This document shows, piece by piece, positions 2,973-54,987 of a DNA stretch of 64,000 nucleotides (within the stretch, counting starts at the first letter, position 1; every line of letters starts with the position of its first letter). The stretch lies in NCBI RefSeq assembly GCF_013409645.1, contig NZ_JACCBG010000001.1, positions 2,850,001 through 2,914,000 on the forward strand, written 5' to 3'. Source of the DNA: Nocardioides panaciterrulae (lineage in GTDB: Bacteria; Actinomycetota; Actinomycetes; Propionibacteriales; Nocardioidaceae). The notes below the pieces were generated by a model. The model did no database searches and was not told where the DNA came from. It saw nothing but the letters and a program-made list of their open reading frames with translations. The translations under genes were made by a program, and so were the position numbers.

Positions 2973-4458
2973 GGCTCTTCTTACCTGCGGTGGGGGCAGT
3001 GAGCGACACGACCTGAGCGCCTGACCCAGACAGGGGTCGAGGCCTTCCAGGATCGGTAGCGACCAAGCTGACCGACCGAAAGGCCTCGACGATGCTCGAG
3101 CCTACGGCGTGCGACCGCGCGCGCCCACGTTCTCAACGCTCCTGCTACTGCGACCGGTGTGACCTCCTCGTCGGCCTCGATGGGTTCCACGTCATCGGCG
3201 TCGGCGAACACGCCGGCGCGGTCCGTGTCGTTGTCGAGACACCGCCTGAGCCGACGGGCTGTCGTAGGTGTGGGGTGATCGCACACAGCCACGGTCGACG
3301 CGACGTGCGCCTGATCGACGTGCCCTGCTTCGGGCGCCCGGTCCGGCTGGTCTGGCGCAAACGAACGTGGCGCTGCGGCGAGGAGAAGTGCACGGCCAGG
3401 TCGTTCACCGAACAGCGCGAGGATCTGGCGGGCCCGCGGGCGTTGCTGACGGTGCGTGCGTGCTGGTGGGCGATCAACCAGCTCCGCCGCGAGCACGCCT
3501 CGGTCGCCGGCCTCGCGCGGCAGCTCGGCACGACCTGGCGCACGCTATGGCGCTCGATCGAGCCGCTGCTCGAGGCCATGGCCGTCGACCCGGCACGCTT
3601 CGAGAACGTCACCAGCCTGGGCGTGGACGAACACATCTGGCACCACGTCTCGACCAGACCGATCAAGGACGGCGGCCGCGGCCCGAAAGAGCTCACCGGG
3701 ATGGTCGACCTGAGTCGTGACCAGGAAGGACGCGTGCGTGCGCGGCTGCTCGACCTGGTCCCGGGCCGATCCGGCAAGGCCTACGCCGACTGGCTCGAAG
3801 AACGCGGCAACGCCTTCCGCGACGGCGTGAAGGTCGCCGCCCTGGACCCTTTCCAGGGCTACAAGACCGCGATCGACGACAAGCTCGAGGACGCCGTCGC
3901 GGTGGTTGATGCGTTCCATGTCGTGAAGCTCGGCACCGCCGCGGTCGATGAGTGCCGGCGCCGGGTCCAGCAAGAGACCCTGGGTCGCCGCGGCCGCAAG
4001 GGCGACCCGCTCTACGGCATCCAGAAACTGCTGCGCGCGGGCGCGGAGAAGCTCACCGACAAGCAGTGGGCCAGATTCGAGAAAGCCATCGCAGCCAGAC
4101 CCGATGAGCACCTGCAGGTCTGGATCGCCTGGTCGTGCGCCCAACAACTCCGCACCGCCTACCGCCACCCCGATCCGGCCGAGGGCCGCAAGATCGCGAC
4201 CAAGATCCTCGACTCGTTCCCGACCTGCCCGGTCCCCGAGATGGCCCGACTCGGTCGCACACTGAAGCGCTGGAAAGAGGCGTTCCTGGCCTACTTCGAG
4301 ACCGGCCGATCCAACAACGGCGGCACAGAGGCCATCAACGGCCTGATCGAGCTCCATCGACGCGTGGCCAGAGGATTCCGCAACCGCGAGAACTACCGCC
4401 TACGCATGCTGCTCATCGGCGGCGGGCTCAGCCACCCCCACCTGAAGTAAGAAGAGCC
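2973..4458 (+). mobile_element. ISL3-family insertion sequence, complete, 1486 bp
   Basis: Terminal inverted repeats begin GGCTCTTCTTAC at both ends (2973 inward; 4458 inward on the other strand) and agree at 21 of the first 24 positions. The right repeat overlaps the transposase stop codon. The 8-bp direct duplication GGTTTCGT flanks it exactly at 2965-2972 and 4459-4466, as expected for ISL3. The intact transposase, intact ends and perfect duplication suggest a fairly recent insertion. It landed in the terminal repeat of the IS3 element. Confidence 0.95.
3092..4450 (+). CDS. ISL3-family transposase
   Basis: 452 residues, full length for the family. A zinc-binding region ('CRRCG', then 'CGEEKC') precedes a helix-turn-helix ('SVAGLARQLGTTWRTLWRSI') and the DDE core: 'VTSLGVDEHIW' with the first Asp, 'VAALDPFQGYKTAID' with the second, and 'GGTEAINGLIELHRRVARGF' with the catalytic Glu, followed by the usual 'RNRENYRLRML' tail. 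It fills a complete element with matching ends. Expression is probably low; no strong ribosome site precedes ATG 3092. Confidence 0.95.
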   Translation: MLEPTACDRARPRSQRSCYCDRCDLLVGLDGFHVIGVGEHAGAVRVVVETPPEPTGCRRCGVIAHSHGRRDVRLIDVPCFGRPVRLVWRKRTWRCGEEKCTARSFTEQREDLAGPRALLTVRACWWAINQLRREHASVAGLARQLGTTWRTLWRSIEPLLEAMAVDPARFENVTSLGVDEHIWHHVSTRPIKDGGRGPKELTGMVDLSRDQEGRVRARLLDLVPGRSGKAYADWLEERGNAFRDGVKVAALDPFQGYKTAIDDKLEDAVAVVDAFHVVKLGTAAVDECRRRVQQETLGRRGRKGDPLYGIQKLLRAGAEKLTDKQWARFEKAIAARPDEHLQVWIAWSCAQQLRTAYRHPDPAEGRKIATKILDSFPTCPVPEMARLGRTLKRWKEAFLAYFETGRSNNGGTEAINGLIELHRRVARGFRNRENYRLRMLLIGGGLSHPHLK

Positions 4459-4476: not shown

Positions 4477-4737
4477 TTAGTTGGAACCGACCTCGATCGG
4501 GACCGGGATTGCAGGGTAGTTCTCGTTCTTGACCGATGCCCAGTGGGTGGCCTCGAACTCTGCTGGTGGGACCTGGCCGATCTCGCCGTGCAGGCGTCGG
4601 TGGTTGAACCAGTCGACGTATTCGGCGACCGCGATCTCGACGTCGCTCACGTTGTTCCAGCCGCCCTTGGGCCGCATGACCGGGTTGCGGATGCACTCGG
4701 CCTTGAAGAGCGAGTTGAGCGCCTCGGCCATCGCGTT
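4477..4737 (-). pseudogene. IS3 orfB transposase, C-terminal fragment
   Basis: 86 codons, NAMAEALNSLFKAEC through 'EYVDWFNHRRLHGEIGQVPPAEFE' to a TAA at the lower end. This is the tail of an IS3-group integrase-core transposase, including the catalytic Glu in NAMAE. It is cut from its N-terminal part by the IS110 element: the preceding codons (GDSYD) resume exactly on the far side at 6153. Non-functional. Confidence 0.9.
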
Positions 4738-4763
4738 GATGCTCCTATAGATCGTCAAGTCGT

Positions 4764-5933
4764 TCAGGCCGCGATTTCGAGCTCTCTGCCGACTGGACTG
4801 GCGACGGCGTCCGGTGCTGGCAGAAGCCGGAAGAGCTCGCGAGCCAGGTAGCGCTTCAGGCACCGGATGATCTCTCGCTTCGACATGCCCTCGGCTGTGC
4901 GGCGGGCTACGTAGTCGATCGTCGGCTGGTGCCATCTCATGCGAACGATGACAACGCGATACAGCGCTGCGTTGGCCTGGCGGTTCCCACCGCGGTACAG
5001 GCGGTGTCGGTTGTTGGTCTTGCCTGATCCGGCTGGGATCGGGCACGCACCGCACATCTTGGCGAATGCCGCCTCGGACTTGATCCGGTTGGCGTTGTCG
5101 CCGGCGGTGATCAGCATCTGCGCGGCGGTGTCGTAGCCGACGCCGACGGCCTCGACGAGCTGGGGCGCCGCGGCTGCCGTGAGGGCCTTCAGCGATGCGG
5201 CGTGTGCCTTGGCCTCCTCGTGCAACGCGAGCCAACGCTTCGCCATCGATGAGAGCACGTGCCGCATCGCAGCGTCGGGGTCGCCAGGCACGACCACAGC
5301 GGGCGCTCCACGCCGGACGGGCGGCAGAGGAGCCGGGCCTTCCAGTGCCGCGCACGCGGTGATCAGCTTGTGGTCGGTGAGCTTCTCCAGCTCGGCACGA
5401 AGTGCTTCGCTCCCGGTCGCGAGGGTCGCCTTGAGCGTGATCATCGCGGTGGTGCGCGCCTGAACGGCACCGTCGTAGGCGATCTTGACCAGCCTGATCA
5501 TCTCGACCGCGCCGTCGGCGGTCTTGGGTGTCGACAGCCCGTGTCCAGCGAGGAGTTGGCGTGCGGCGTGCTCGGCGTCGATGGTGTCGTTCTTGCCTGC
5601 GAGTCGGCGTTCCACCGCGCGTGCGGGCCGGGCGATCTCGTGGACGTCGTGGCCGTGGTTGCGCAGGTAGCGAGCCAGACCGACTCCGTAGGAGCCGGTG
5701 CCCTCGATGCCGAACCCGATCAGGCGACCGGCGGGCCCGACGAATGCCAGGCAGAAGGCGAGGAGCTCCTCGAAGCCGGCGATGGTGGTGGGCACGATGA
5801 TGTCGCCGAGTCGACCGCCAAGGCCGTCGATCGCGACGGCGACGTGGTTGTCCTTGTGGGTGTCGACGCCGACGATGACATCGTCGCGGCGAAGCTGCAT
5901 GCTGGGCATCGGGCTGTGGATCCTCTCTCGCAT
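4764..5933 (-). CDS. IS110-family transposase (DEDD recombinase)
   Basis: 389 residues. The N-terminal RuvC-like DEDD domain shows 'VIVGVDTHKDNHVAVAI' (first Asp), 'GFGIEGTGSYGVGLARYL' (Glu) and 'KNDTIDAEHAARQLLAG' (Asp pair). The C-terminal Tnp_20 domain has 'CGACPIPAGSGKTNNRHRLY' followed by 'RGGNRQANAALYRVV', where the catalytic Ser is expected. An in-frame ATG at 5909 behind GAGAGGA may be the true start. Known family chemistry: recombination guided by a bridge RNA made from the element's non-coding end. The gene is intact and its own 5' region carries a plausible bridge RNA, so the element may be active. Confidence 0.95.
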   Translation of the reverse strand: MRERIHSPMPSMQLRRDDVIVGVDTHKDNHVAVAIDGLGGRLGDIIVPTTIAGFEELLAFCLAFVGPAGRLIGFGIEGTGSYGVGLARYLRNHGHDVHEIARPARAVERRLAGKNDTIDAEHAARQLLAGHGLSTPKTADGAVEMIRLVKIAYDGAVQARTTAMITLKATLATGSEALRAELEKLTDHKLITACAALEGPAPLPPVRRGAPAVVVPGDPDAAMRHVLSSMAKRWLALHEEAKAHAASLKALTAAAAPQLVEAVGVGYDTAAQMLITAGDNANRIKSEAAFAKMCGACPIPAGSGKTNNRHRLYRGGNRQANAALYRVVIVRMRWHQPTIDYVARRTAEGMSKREIIRCLKRYLARELFRLLPAPDAVASPVGRELEIAA

Positions 5934-5974
5934 TTTCCGGGCGGGCTGTCCATGGCTCAGCTGGCCGGAGTGGG

Positions 5975-6135
5975 CGGACAGGACTGCGATGAGACCCTGG
6001 TCGAGTCAGGCTCCTATCAGGTCACTGCCCACCCGGCCAGCAGCCTGGTGAACGCCACCACCCGAGGCCGACACGTCAACGCGAGGGCACCCGCAGGGCC
6101 GGTCATAAGCAAGGGTCAGACCCCAGGGGGTGGCG
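5975..6135 (-). ncRNA. Predicted IS110 bridge RNA with readable target and donor guides
   Basis: It lies in the 219-bp non-coding head of the element. In 5'-to-3' RNA order it has a small GC hairpin (6120-6131, ACCCC-CT-GGGGT), TATGAC (6107-6102) matching the left half of the target, and TCGCGTTG (6084-6077), the complement of the right half CAACGCGA. Next come ATAGGAGC (6017-6010), identical to the element's right end at 4748-4741, and TCGCAGTC (5989-5982), the complement of the left-end junction GACTGCGA at 6155-6148. The order target loop then donor loop is that known for the IS621 bridge RNA. Exact RNA ends are not determinable by eye. Guide identity is seen; function is inferred. Confidence 0.7.
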
Positions 6136-6152
6136 CAGACAGGATGCTCGCA

Positions 6153-6299
6153 GTCATACGAATCGCCCTTCGACCCAACCGGAGCGACGGCCTCAGCTTC
6201 GGCCAATCTCTCGGTGTAGCGGATCGCTCGATACTGGACTCCTCAGTCGCTGTGGTGCGTCAGTCCGGTGAGGTCTTGGCCGGCTAGTCGCAGCCGGTG
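6153..6299 (-). pseudogene. IS3 orfB transposase, internal fragment with a nonsense codon
   Basis: About 49 codons read 'AGQDLTGLTHHSD', then a TGA (6243-6245) where IS3 transposases usually have Arg (HHSDRG), then 'GVQYRAIRYTERLAEAEAV' and 'GSKGDSYD'. They abut the IS110 left end; the next codons (NAMAE) are at 4737. Everything upstream in the transposase gene is gone or unrecognisable, so the IS3 was already decayed, or has decayed since the IS110 landed. Confidence 0.85.
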
Positions 6300-6574
6300 A
6301 AGTCAACCTTGTCGCCATGACGGGCTGCACGGTCCGTCGAGAAGGCCCTTACCTGGGAAGTAATGGCCACCGGTGATCACTCCGGCGTCCGGGTTGAGAC
6401 CGGGGCAACGATGGGTCCCTCCGCGAAACCCGGAGTCTCGCCCGCCGCCCGCTGCCCGTCGGAGCCGGGTCGCACCGCGGCCTACCCGGGTCTTTTGCCT
6501 CTGTGGCACCCCCGAGGGCCGCGGCCAGCCTCCTAGTGAGCGCTCAGACCGGAGCCGAGAGACGGGGTCGGACC

Positions 6575-9478
6575 ATGTCCAGTACGCAGATGCTCATCGT
6601 GGCGGGTTACCCCGATGTCGAGGTCGCCACCGCCGAGTTCCGCGCGCTGGCGGGTCAGGTCGGGGCCAGGAAGCTGTCGAGCCAGGGCATGATCCTCGTC
6701 GGCAAGGACACCGACGGGACACCTCGACTGCTGGACACAGGGAACCACCTCGGTCGTCGTGGCGCGGATTGGGGCGGGGGCGCGGGCCTGCTCGTGGGGG
6801 TATTCGCGCCGCCCATGCTCGGTGCGGTGGCGGTGGGCGCGGCGGCCGGTGGGGTCGTCGGCCACTTCGCCGGCCACAAGCTCACCGCGACCGTCCAGGC
6901 GCAGGTGGGTGCCGCCCTGAAGGCGGGCACCGCGGTGATCATCGGCGTGTTCCCGGCCGAGTCCCGCCTCGACGTCGAGCGGGCCCTTCCGGGCGCACCC
7001 CTCAAGTCCGTGGTGGAGAGCGACGAGCGCGGGATCGACGAGCTCAAGGCGAAGCTGTCCGAGGCGATGGGCAAGTTCAAGCCCGATCGCAGCGTCCTCC
7101 CGATGCCGGACCGAAGCTTCAGCGGGGTCGGCGGTCGGACGATCGACGAGTCCGAGGGCGACTGGAGCATCGTGGCGCCGGCGAAGGCACCCGACGGTGC
7201 GCCCAACGTCCTCATCATCCTCATCGACGACGCCGGCTTCGGCGGCCCCGACACCTTCGGCGGTGGCATCCGGACGCCGAACCTCACCCGCGTGCAGCAG
7301 CAGGGCATCACCTACAACAGGTTCCACGTGACCGCGGTGTGCTCCCCGACCCGCGCCGCGATGCTGACCGGTCGCAACCACCACCGCGTGGGAATGGGCG
7401 GGATCGCCGAGTTCCCCGCCCCGTTCCCCGGCTACACCGGTATCCGCCCGCGGTCCTGCACCGCACTGCCTCGCATCCTGAAGGAGAACGGGTATGTCAC
7501 CGGCGGGTTCGGCAAGTGGCACATGACTCCTGGGCATGACATGGGCGCGGCGGGCTCGTTCGACCACTGGCCCACGGGGTGGGGTTTCGACCATTGGTGG
7601 GGCTTCCTGACCGGGGCCGCGGGTCAGTACGACCCGATCATCACCCAGGACAACTCGACCCTCGGCGTTCCCGAGGGGGCGGACGGGAAGCTGTACTACT
7701 TCCCGGACGACATCACCGACAAGGCGGTCGAGTGGCTGCACGCGGTCCGTGCCCAGGACGCCGAGAAGCCGTGGTTCGTCTACTACTCCACCGGTGCGAC
7801 CCATGCCCCGCATCACGTGGCCAAGGAGTGGGCGGACAAGTACAAGGGCCAGTTCGACGACGGCTGGGACGTGTACCGCGAGAAGACTCTCGAACGGCAG
7901 AAGAAGCTCGGCATCGTTCCGGCCGACACCGAGCTCACCGAGCGACCCGCGGCGTACCCCGCCTGGGACGGCCTTAGTGACGCGGAGCGCAAGCTGTACG
8001 CCCGTCAGATGGAGGTGTTCGCCGGGTACTCGGAGAACGCCGACTGGAACGTCGGCCGGATGCTCGACGCGGTCGAGGAGATGGGCGAGCTCGACGACAC
8101 GCTGGTGATCTACGTCTGGGGCGACAACGGGGCCTCGATGGAGGGCACGGTGACGGGCTCGTTCAACGAGACCACGTTCTTCAACGGCGTGGTGCTCGAC
8201 GCCGAGGAGCAGTTCGAGATGATCGACAAGTACGGCGGCCTCGCGGAGCTCGGCGGCTTCCACACCGCCCCGCACTTCGCGGCAGCCTGGGCGCACGCGA
8301 ACAACGCGCCGTTCCAGTGGGGCAAGCAGATGGCCAGCCACCTCGGTGGGACGCGCGACCCGATGGTCATCTCGTGGCCCAAGAGGATCACCGGCGGCGG
8401 CGACCTGCGGACGCAGTTCACCCACTGCATCGACATCGTCCCCACGGTCCTGGACGTCATCGGACTCCCGGAGCCGACCGTCGTGGACGGTGTCGAGCAG
8501 GAGCCGATGGACGGCACCAGCTTCGCCTACACCTTCGACGCCCCCGAGGCCGCCGAGCAGCACACGGTCCAGTACTTCGAGATGTACGGCAGTCGCGCGA
8601 TCTACAAGGACGGCTGGTGGGCCTGCACCAAGCTCGACAAGCTGCCCTGGGACTTCTCACCGGCCACCCTCGCCCGGTTCGGGCCCGGCAGCGACTGGGA
8701 TCCCGGGAAGGATCACTGGGAGCTCTACTACCTGCCCGACGACTTCTCCCAGGCCCACGATCTCTCGGCCGAGCACCCCGACAAGGTCGCGGAGCTGGTC
8801 GAGCTCTTCTGGGCCGAGGCCGAGCGCAACCGGGTGCTGCCACTCCTGGGCGGGTTCGCGGTGTTCTTCGGGATGCTGCCGCCGGTGCCCACCCAGACCC
8901 GGTTCCCGTTCGCCGGCGACGTGCAGAACATCCAGACCACGCAGATCCCACGGATCATCGGACGCTCCTACGCCATCGAGGCCGATGTCCACGTGCCCAA
9001 GAGTGGGGCAGAGGGAGTCCTGGTGGCCTTCGCGGACTTCATCGGTGGGTTCGCGCTGTGGGTCGACGAGAATGGGCTGCTGAACCACACCTATCAGTAT
9101 CTCGGCATCGACACCTACCGGCAGACCTCGACCGAGCCGATCCCCAGCGGCGACGTCACCCTCAAGATGCTGTTCGACGCCGACCAGGCGACCCCAGGCA
9201 CCGGTGGCCACGTCACCCTGTGGGCCGATGGCAAGCAGATCGGGGAGGGAGACATCCCGCGCACCGTCTCGCTGATCTTCACCACCTACGCAGGCATGGA
9301 CATCTCCCGGGACAACGGCGGCGTCGTCGACCTCGACTACGAGGACCGGGCGCCATACCCGTTCACCGGCACCGTCCGCAACGTCGTCTTCGACCTCGCG
9401 CCCCATGCCCACGACGACGACCTCTCCCTCCACGAGTCCACCGCCCAGGCCGCACTCGCCCACGGGGCAGCCGGCTGA
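6575..9478 (+). CDS. DUF1269-sulfatase fusion (arylsulfatase)
   Basis: 967 residues from ATG 6575 (GAGACGGGG upstream). Residues 1-170 look like DUF1269: 'MLIVAGYPDVEVATAEF', then a Gly/Ala-rich hydrophobic hairpin (about residues 66-110). From residue 205 it is a type I sulfatase: 'NVLIILIDDAGFG' (metal Asp pair), then 'VCSPTRAAMLTGRN' with Cys256 in the CxPxRxxxxTG motif that becomes formylglycine, 'GFGKWHM' and 'HLGGTRDPMVISWP'. The C-terminal 200 residues ('ADFIGGFALWVDENG') form a beta-rich extra domain. It hydrolyses sulfate esters; the substrate is unknown. There is no Sec signal peptide, so it may stay cytoplasmic or membrane-linked through the DUF1269 hairpin. A maturase lies in the same operon. 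Confidence 0.9.
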   Translation: MSSTQMLIVAGYPDVEVATAEFRALAGQVGARKLSSQGMILVGKDTDGTPRLLDTGNHLGRRGADWGGGAGLLVGVFAPPMLGAVAVGAAAGGVVGHFAGHKLTATVQAQVGAALKAGTAVIIGVFPAESRLDVERALPGAPLKSVVESDERGIDELKAKLSEAMGKFKPDRSVLPMPDRSFSGVGGRTIDESEGDWSIVAPAKAPDGAPNVLIILIDDAGFGGPDTFGGGIRTPNLTRVQQQGITYNRFHVTAVCSPTRAAMLTGRNHHRVGMGGIAEFPAPFPGYTGIRPRSCTALPRILKENGYVTGGFGKWHMTPGHDMGAAGSFDHWPTGWGFDHWWGFLTGAAGQYDPIITQDNSTLGVPEGADGKLYYFPDDITDKAVEWLHAVRAQDAEKPWFVYYSTGATHAPHHVAKEWADKYKGQFDDGWDVYREKTLERQKKLGIVPADTELTERPAAYPAWDGLSDAERKLYARQMEVFAGYSENADWNVGRMLDAVEEMGELDDTLVIYVWGDNGASMEGTVTGSFNETTFFNGVVLDAEEQFEMIDKYGGLAELGGFHTAPHFAAAWAHANNAPFQWGKQMASHLGGTRDPMVISWPKRITGGGDLRTQFTHCIDIVPTVLDVIGLPEPTVVDGVEQEPMDGTSFAYTFDAPEAAEQHTVQYFEMYGSRAIYKDGWWACTKLDKLPWDFSPATLARFGPGSDWDPGKDHWELYYLPDDFSQAHDLSAEHPDKVAELVELFWAEAERNRVLPLLGGFAVFFGMLPPVPTQTRFPFAGDVQNIQTTQIPRIIGRSYAIEADVHVPKSGAEGVLVAFADFIGGFALWVDENGLLNHTYQYLGIDTYRQTSTEPIPSGDVTLKMLFDADQATPGTGGHVTLWADGKQIGEGDIPRTVSLIFTTYAGMDISRDNGGVVDLDYEDRAPYPFTGTVRNVVFDLAPHAHDDDLSLHESTAQAALAHGAAG

Positions 9479-34272: not shown

Positions 34273-34374
34273 CATGCGGCATACTGGCGGCCGGGTAGGC
34301 CCCCGGGCGCGCAGAACTACAAAGCTGGATTTCCTATGTTTTGCTCGACTGGAGTTCCTACCCCCCGCCCCTGT
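34273..34374 (+). repeat. Direct repeat copy B, the 5' flank of tRNA-Arg(UCU)
   Basis: The counterpart of 13109-13209. It ends inside the first eight bases of the intact tRNA gene, so it covers what should be the tRNA promoter. The two copies differ in two short spacers. Copy B sits at the border between the accessory region and conserved chromosome. Confidence 0.8.
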
Positions 34375-34443
34375 AGCTCAGCTGGATAGAGCAAGAGCCT
34401 TCTAATCTCTAGGTCGCAGGTTCGAGTCCTGCCGGGGGCGCCA
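34367..34443 (+). tRNA. tRNA-Arg(UCU)
   Basis: Acceptor GCCCCTG (34367) pairs with CGGGGGC, D-stem GCTC/GAGC, anticodon TCT at 34401-34403 with A37, T-arm GCAGG-TTCGAGT-CCTGC, discriminator G and encoded CCA to 34443. The anticodon stem has one C-U mismatch next to the loop (positions 31 and 39). Confidence 0.92.
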
Positions 34444-43526: not shown

Positions 43527-43603
43527 GGTGGGTGTAGCTCAGCTGGTAGAGCACCTGGTTGTGGTCCAGGTGGCCGCGGGTTCAAGTCCCGTCACTCACC
43601 CCA
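43527..43603 (+). tRNA. tRNA-His(GUG)
   Basis: G-1 at 43527 pairs with C73; acceptor GTGGGTG/CACTCAC, D-arm GCTC/GAGC, anticodon GTG at 43561-43563, T-arm CGGGTTCAAGTCCCG, encoded CCA to 43603. It follows orn by 39 bp. Confidence 0.97.

Positions 43604-54911: not shown

Positions 54912-54987
<76 letters not shown>

What the first reader, a model, noticed from the sequence alone, without database searches (positions are those of the whole stretch)
5975..6152. IS110 bridge RNA whose four guide segments can be read from sequence, including its own target
Rejoining the interrupted IS3 gene gives the element ends and the pre-insertion target (...TCGTATGAC|AACGCGATGG...). The 219-bp non-coding head contains, in the order known for the IS621 bridge RNA, TATGAC (target left half), TCGCGTTG (complement of CAACGCGA, target right half), ATAGGAGC (identical to the right end, stopping three bases short of the boundary) and TCGCAGTC (complement of the left-end junction; six bases belong to the shared C plus element). 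A given 8-mer has well under a 1% chance of turning up in so short a region, and three appear in the correct order and strand. This gives a natural bridge RNA with an inferred target, from a family whose members are mostly uncharacterised.
Basis: partly seen in the sequence, partly recalled or inferred. Interest (0 to 1): 0.88.

Follow-up and report, generated by a model that had tools for sequence, protein, structure and literature searches.

The report
IS110 bridge RNA targeting IS3 elements
This is a jumping gene that carries its own guide RNA; comparison with dozens of related copies indicates that the RNA spells out where the element inserts, here the active-site codons of another kind of jumping gene, a clear natural example of a mechanism that is already known.

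Summary
A 1,415-bp IS110-group element (6152..4738, minus strand) has a 219-nt non-coding head with, in order, LTG UAUGAC, RTG UCGCGUUG, LDG AUAGGAGC, RDG UCGCAG. Thirteen close copies, eleven in other genomes, keep the same donor guides and all sit at GAY|A(A/G)CGC, two of them apparently outside IS3 genes. Over 30 guide groups (69 copies) target guides change with the insertion site; no random re-pairing of guides and sites reached the observed score (0 of 20,000 for LTG, RTG, RDG and LDG). Two bases after RDG pair with target positions 7-8, as IS621 handshake guides do. RNA stems show two-sided changes; the IS621 catalytic residues align. Exceptions exist: two copies at poor sites, weak RTG fit in two groups.

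So it is very probably a bridge RNA, but of a known kind: IS621, and ISEc21, which already inserts into IS3 catalytic-domain codons. Less expected: target and donor share one base at the crossover, not a CT dinucleotide; and with G.U pairs the guide fits 37 of 40 intact IS3 sites, against 11 by Watson-Crick alone. No transcript or activity was shown.

The parts
4738..6152 (-). whole IS110-group element, 1,415 bp
   Evidence: ends from 13 close copies with different flanks; length
4764..5933 (-). IS110 recombinase, 389 aa
   Evidence: Pfam PF01548 and PF02371 above cut-off; profile matches IS621 and ISCro4 in the PDB
5934..6152 (-). left end, non-coding head
5954..6138 (-). stretch modelled as bridge RNA (two loops)
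   Evidence: 25-sequence alignment and consensus fold; single fold z -3.26; RNA ends not known
6115..6124 (-). target-loop stem, 5' arm
   Evidence: consensus pairs; coordinates converted by hand
6102..6107 (-). left target guide UAUGAC
6077..6084 (-). right target guide UCGCGUUG
6075..6076 (-). target-loop handshake bases AC; A pairs donor T8, C does not pair donor A7
6064..6072 (-). target-loop stem, 3' arm
   Evidence: coordinates converted by hand
6021..6029 (-). donor-loop stem, 5' arm
   Evidence: coordinates converted by hand
6010..6017 (-). left donor guide AUAGGAGC
5984..5989 (-). right donor guide UCGCAG
5982..5983 (-). donor-loop handshake bases UC, pair target A8 and G7
5972..5979 (-). 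donor-loop stem, 3' arm
   Evidence: coordinates converted by hand
4738..4748 (-). left donor ATAGGAGCATC (right end of the element)
6143..6152 (-). right donor TGCGAGCATC (left tip of the element)
4753..4758 (-). TTGACG, candidate -35 box; would face the weak GAGCAT at 6149..6144 (18 apart) when the ends are joined
   Evidence: TTGAC in the right end of 24 of 26 groups; best -10 hexamer matches only 3 of 6
6153..6161 (-). left half of the target, TCGTATGAC
4728..4737 (-). right half of the target, AACGCGATGG

Best explanation
The left end of this IS110-group element encodes a bridge RNA. [quoted passage not shown] Its second loop (LDG, RDG) pairs with the joined right and left ends of the element's circular form. 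The DEDD/serine recombinase exchanges top strands right after the one shared base (position 9), helped by handshake bases that then pair with the incoming strand. Supported by sequence comparison: element ends, empty site, guide-target and guide-donor pairing and their joint variation, two-loop structure, aligned catalytic residues, crossover position. Inferred from IS621 and ISEc21: transcription from the joined ends, RNA-protein complex, order of strand exchange, circular intermediate.
For: Thirteen close copies with different flanks all at GAY|A(A/G)CGC with unchanged donor guides; LTG and RTG fit own targets better than swapped ones, 0 of 20,000 permutations each, also among the 14 (LTG) and 13 (RTG) groups with non-IS3-type targets; RDG, LDG and donor-loop handshake bases likewise 0 of 20,000; 21 consensus pairs, 11 with two-sided changes; profile match to IS621 and ISCro4; empty sites; shuffles.
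Against: No transcript or activity. RTG fits poorly in groups V (3-4 of 7) and Y (3 of 7); L033 and L039 left halves fit at 5 of 7 even with G.U. Of 468 guide-target positions in 78 half-sites, 45 are neither Watson-Crick nor G.U. Copy L198 fits poorly on the right and L007 has an unrelated right flank. The window's target-loop handshake pairs at one of two bases. The -10 box is weak. The joint variation is partly shared ancestry, which permutation over groups does not remove.
Confidence: 0.93

Rival explanations
1. The recombinase alone recognises target and ends; the head is a leader or regulator, and its matches to target and ends have another cause.
For: No RNA was observed. Donor guides are so conserved that in LDG they could also be a protein site (own 7.92 vs other 7.47 of 8).
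Against: Target-guide stretches change with the site over 30 groups, including changes within 91-97% identical heads (L041/L042 and L195 vs the rest); the loops flank conserved stems with two-sided changes; IS621 and ISEc21 relatives are RNA-guided.
Confidence: 0.04
2. The copies lie at one kind of site because they were carried along inside IS3 elements, by homologous recombination or duplication of one insertion, not by repeated targeted insertion.
For: The two own copies have the same 14 bases on each side and a 99% identical right flank; L034 and L035 have the same flanks.
Against: Flanking IS3 genes of the other copies differ strongly from each other; L033 and L039 are apparently not in IS3 genes (by eye); related elements with other guides sit at other matching sites.
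Confidence: 0.03

Closest known systems
ISEc21 (IS110 type; Siddiquee et al. 2024, PMC11187229; passages and sections 12 and 14 read)
   Same: Non-coding RNA region upstream of tnp; bottom-strand match 5' of top-strand match; target in a conserved region of IS3-family transposase genes coding for catalytic-domain residues; insertion without duplication; natural redirection in a relative (ISMch6).
   Different: The paper places the ISEc21 target around the second D of DDE, while this target codes Y-D-N-A just before the E; I could not see its figure to tell whether these are one site. Sequence relatedness to ISEc21 itself not tested. ISEc21 is experimentally shown.
IS621 (IS110 group; Durrant 2024 PMC11208160 and Hiraizumi 2024 PMC11208158; passages read)
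   Same: Left-end bridge RNA, order LTG, RTG, LDG, RDG in two loops; DEDD plus serine recombinase; handshake bases; top-strand crossover after position 9.
   Different: IS621 shares a CT core (positions 8-9) between target and donor; here only position 9 is shared. LDG here ends three bases before the crossover and RDG pairs without a break; IS621 LDG reaches the core and its RDG is discontinuous.
ISCro4 (PDB 9t56, sequence match only)
   Same: Homologous recombinase, E 1.2e-15 to the family profile.
   Different: Its RNA and target were not compared.
Unnamed IS110 elements on Enterobacteriaceae plasmids (L133, L134)
   Same: 48% identical recombinase (L133); LTG TGCTGGGAT equals its IS3 target TGCTGGGAT; same end and loop layout.
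   Different: Target codes W-D-N-S; hosts are enterobacteria.

Membership tests
IS110 family, IS110 group | DEDD RuvC-like domain plus C-terminal Tnp domain with conserved serine | tested here: met
   Both Pfam domains; D24, E77, D116, D119, S303 conserved in the family and aligned to IS621 D11, E60, D102, D105, S241 after a two-residue offset of the PDB chain
IS110 family, IS110 group | long non-coding region upstream of tnp | tested here: met
   219 nt upstream, 26 nt between stop codon and right boundary
IS110 family, IS110 group | circular intermediate with promoter at the joined ends | tested here: inconclusive
   TTGAC in 24 of 26 groups but weak -10 hexamers; circle not testable with these tools
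bridge RNA (bRNA) | two loops, first matching target, second matching donor, each on both strands | tested here: met
bridge RNA (bRNA) | transcribed and bound by the recombinase | not testable with these tools
   no RNA data
bridge RNA (bRNA) | match to a curated RNA family | tested here: not met
   no Rfam family matched the head at threshold, only mir-197 at E 0.57 in a permissive search; whether Rfam holds a bridge RNA family was not checked
IS621 subgroup | CT core dinucleotide shared by target and donor | tested here: not met
   position 8 differs between the two junctions in 63 of 63 copies with both ends read
ISEc21-like IS3-targeting IS110 | target within conserved IS3 transposase catalytic-domain codons | tested here: met
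   exact identity with the ISEc21 site not checked
ISEc21-like IS3-targeting IS110 | close sequence relation to ISEc21 | not tested
   ISEc21 sequence not identified here; plasmid relatives carry no such name

The most novel reading that the evidence does not exclude
The guide has come to read a protein motif rather than one DNA word: U in LTG and G in RTG sit opposite degenerate third codon positions of TAY-GAY-AAY-GCN, so that G.U pairs let one RNA enter IS3 genes whatever their synonymous codons, across genera. In addition, the one-base core makes every natural insertion report strand inheritance: position 8 is target-type on the left and donor-type on the right in every copy read, the outcome of the top-strand exchange only.
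Probability: 0.3. Interest if true: 0.6.

Novelty: new member of a known kind. Interest (0 to 1): 0.42.

Why it matters
It is an actinobacterial bridge-RNA element with a readable target, and it comes with 30 natural guide groups in which donor guides stay nearly fixed while target guides are rewritten. That is natural evidence for modular retargeting and for the handshake model in elements remote from IS621. The single shared base at the crossover makes strand inheritance visible in natural copies, which an identical CT core would hide, and the wobble pattern suggests how a short guide can follow a conserved protein motif.

Tried and rejected
Rejected: chance matches; protein-only targeting; an IS621-type CT core. 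Rfam gave nothing for the head at threshold and only mir-197 at E 0.57 in a permissive search. A single-sequence PDB search found nothing; the profile search did. Selection for wobble is not established: among IS3-targeting groups LTG position 6 is U in some and C in others; of non-Watson-Crick positions with U or G in the guide, 18 are G.U and 4 other for IS3 targets (p 4e-6) but 13 and 13 for other targets (p 0.06), and 13 and 15 further mismatches have A or C in the guide; synonymous codon drift may explain the excess. A guide with C at position 6 fits more intact IS3 sites by Watson-Crick pairs alone (21 of 40) than the window's U guide (11 of 40), fewer with G.U (24 vs 37), and U at position 9 would fit 40. 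Naming L133/L134 as ISEc21 was dropped: none of the 25 listed plasmid hits (of 53 records) is annotated so.

Weak points: covariance model R1 was built with the window sequence in it, so its 154-bit window hit is by construction. The search for right ends first required T at position 8; a relaxed pattern found T8 C9 in 63 of 63 right ends, the window not among them. L004 and L044 were dropped from the group tests because a contig end cuts their left flank (69 of 71 copies kept). L195, L133-L136, L198, L201 and L204 were read but are not in the permutations. Donor guides were read by hand and checked to occur in the RNA. L008's junction is ambiguous; it was moved by one base and left out in the junction counts. 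Groups are related by descent, so the permutation counts are not exact probabilities. In one search sites were placed by best score near the expected point.

Full report
What is there. The window lies in a 4.27-Mb single-contig genome. On the minus strand an IS110 recombinase ORF of 389 aa (5933..4764) has both IS110 Pfam domains. It is preceded by a 219-nt non-coding head and followed by a short right end...TTGACGATCTATAGGAGCATC. The element, 6152..4738, is 1,415 bp. It interrupts an IS3-type transposase gene: the right piece matches PF13683 and PF13333; the left piece is a remnant with an in-frame stop. A second copy lies 0.5 Mb away; its protein and head are identical, the whole alignment shows no difference within the element, and its left IS3 flank is more diverged than its right one. 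A search with the last 84 aa of the IS3 gene found only these two places in the genome.

Empty site. Of 196 genomes of the genus, 86 (own included) match the right IS3 flank. I fetched 40 sites from 39 of them, chosen among the better matches. All 40 carry the site without insert and read D-(S/A)-Y-D-N-A-x-x-E; five are exactly TCGTATGAC|AACGCGAT.

Close copies. A scan of genome contigs gave 50 loci. Ten encode a 94-96% identical recombinase, in Agromyces, Janibacter, Propionicimonas, Arsenicicoccus and Nocardioides; over the element their DNA is 89-91% identical. With the two own copies and L195 (97% over the head) this makes 13. LDG and RDG are the same in all 13 and the right end is the same in the 12 printed; flanks differ. 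All left flanks end GAC or GAT and all right flanks begin AACGC or AGCGC. Own copies share their 14 flanking bases, and so do L034 and L035. By eye eleven are in IS3 codons; L033 and L039 are not, and L039 lies in another open frame that happens to contain GACAACGCG. This points to the sequence, not the IS3 gene, as what is recognised. In L041, L042 and L195 the LTG reads TTACGAC instead of TTATGAC.

Guides and targets vary together. I assembled 71 insertions; 69 fall in 30 guide groups. Examples: cyanobacterial L052 LTG AGTTGAC with target AGTTGAC and RTG GGTATTG with CAGTACC; L009 TTTGCGC with TTTGCGC; TCGATAC in all seven insertions of the L011 group; GCTCGAC in all three of the L013 group; L047 RTG TGGATTG with CAATCCG. 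Over seven positions, counting exact matches, own targets beat swapped ones in every permutation (LTG 5.92 vs 3.73, 30 groups; RTG 5.37 vs 4.06, 26 groups; 0 of 20,000 each). For groups with other than IS3-type targets the values are 6.30 vs 3.26 (14 groups) and 5.06 vs 3.34 (13 groups), again 0 of 20,000. Against this: RTG fits poorly in groups V (3-4 of 7) and Y (3 of 7), and L033, L039, L041, L047 and L063 left halves fit at 5 of 7. Copy L007 has an IS3 left flank but an unrelated right flank, and L198 has CTTCAAC|TGTGAAC, which RTG does not explain; in both the right end is followed by TGTGA, like the right donor half.

Donor guides and handshake. With G.U allowed, RDG pairs at all six positions in 29 of 30 groups although the left tip itself varies (TGCGA, TGCGG, TGTGA, TGTCA, AGTGA, AGAGA, AGTAA, ATTGA); in group V it pairs at five. 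LDG matches 8 of 8 in 23 of 25 groups, including AGGGGC, AGGACC and AGAAGC variants; groups Q and AA have one mismatch. The two bases 3' of RDG pair with target positions 8 and 7 in 29 of 30 groups and change with them (UG with CG or CA, UA with TA, GU with GC); group S pairs at one. The two bases 3' of RTG pair with donor positions 8 and 7 fully in 17 of 25 groups, at one base in seven (the window among them) and at none in group N. This is the handshake arrangement of Hiraizumi 2024 (PMC11208158, passages read).

Structure and protein. A 25-sequence alignment gives a two-loop consensus with 21 pairs, 11 of them with two-sided changes: a target-loop stem and hairpin, then a donor-loop stem and hairpin, each stem ending in GAC/GUC at the loop. 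The window RNA folds better than shuffles (z -3.26; 1 of 200 as good). A profile of 24 recombinases finds IS621 (8wt6, E 5.4e-16) and ISCro4 (9t56, E 1.2e-15) in the PDB. Allowing for a two-residue offset of the PDB chain, window D24, E77, D116, D119 and S303 align with D11, E60, D102, D105 and S241; all five are invariant or nearly so in the family. The residue numbers of IS621 come from the paper.

Crossover. In 63 of 63 copies with both ends read (L008 left out) position 8 differs between the two junctions: target-type on the left, donor T on the right. In six copies (L041, L057, L059, L012, L124, L125) position 9 is T on the left and C on the right. So the crossover read from the sequence lies right after position 9 and only that base is shared. 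IS621 shares C8-T9 and is cut after T9. If the donor motif AT-C with handshake AU is equivalent in both, the cut here lies one base nearer to it; that is inference. No copy shows the outcome of the other strand; whether this means biased inheritance or a flush cut is open.

Wobble. Over positions 4-14 the window guide fits 11 of 40 intact IS3 sites by Watson-Crick pairs and 37 of 40 with G.U (the three others have GAT); a guide with C at LTG position 6 would fit 21 and 24. Since related elements use either base, this is a suggestive advantage, not proof of selection.

Promoter. TTGAC stands in the right end of 24 of 26 groups, at -35 distance from a conserved but weak GAnnAT-like hexamer in the left tip (window 3 of 6 matches to TATAAT), in line with the junction promoter reported for IS621 and ISEc21 but not proof of one.

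Known or new. Searches of the paper library led to three key papers. Durrant 2024 (passages) already inferred guide-target covariation for thousands of IS110s. Siddiquee 2024 (passages, sections 12 and 14) showed that ISEc21, an IS110 with upstream guide RNA, targets IS3 catalytic-domain codons and inserts without duplication. The window element is a new member of this known kind. ISfinder was not at hand, so an existing name cannot be excluded; a library search for 'IS110', 'bridge RNA' and 'actinobacteria' together returned no paper.

Noticed in passing
L007 (right flank) and L198 (right flank): Two related copies whose right end is followed by TGTGA, the sequence of their own right donor half, instead of a target right half; possibly recombination at donor-like sites or rearrangement.
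   Followed up: partly
window 3092-4450, + strand: A 452-aa ORF beside the IS3 remnant reads like an ISL3-family transposase (by recall, not searched), so the element sits in a cluster of nested or adjoining insertion sequences.
   Followed up: no
L133 and L134 (E. albertii and K. grimontii plasmids): IS110 elements about 45% identical whose LTG equals a W-D-N-S codon target in IS3-type genes; the same strategy in enterobacteria.
   Followed up: partly
L057, L059, L012, L124, L125, L041: Left junction keeps T at position 9 while the right junction has C, so the crossover point can be read directly from sequence.
   Followed up: yes
window 6503-9478, + strand: A 991-aa ORF that reads like an arylsulfatase (by recall, not searched) starts about 350 bp from the element.
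   Followed up: no
window 34367-34440, 43528-43600, 54912-54984: Three tRNA genes (Rfam RF00005).
   Followed up: no
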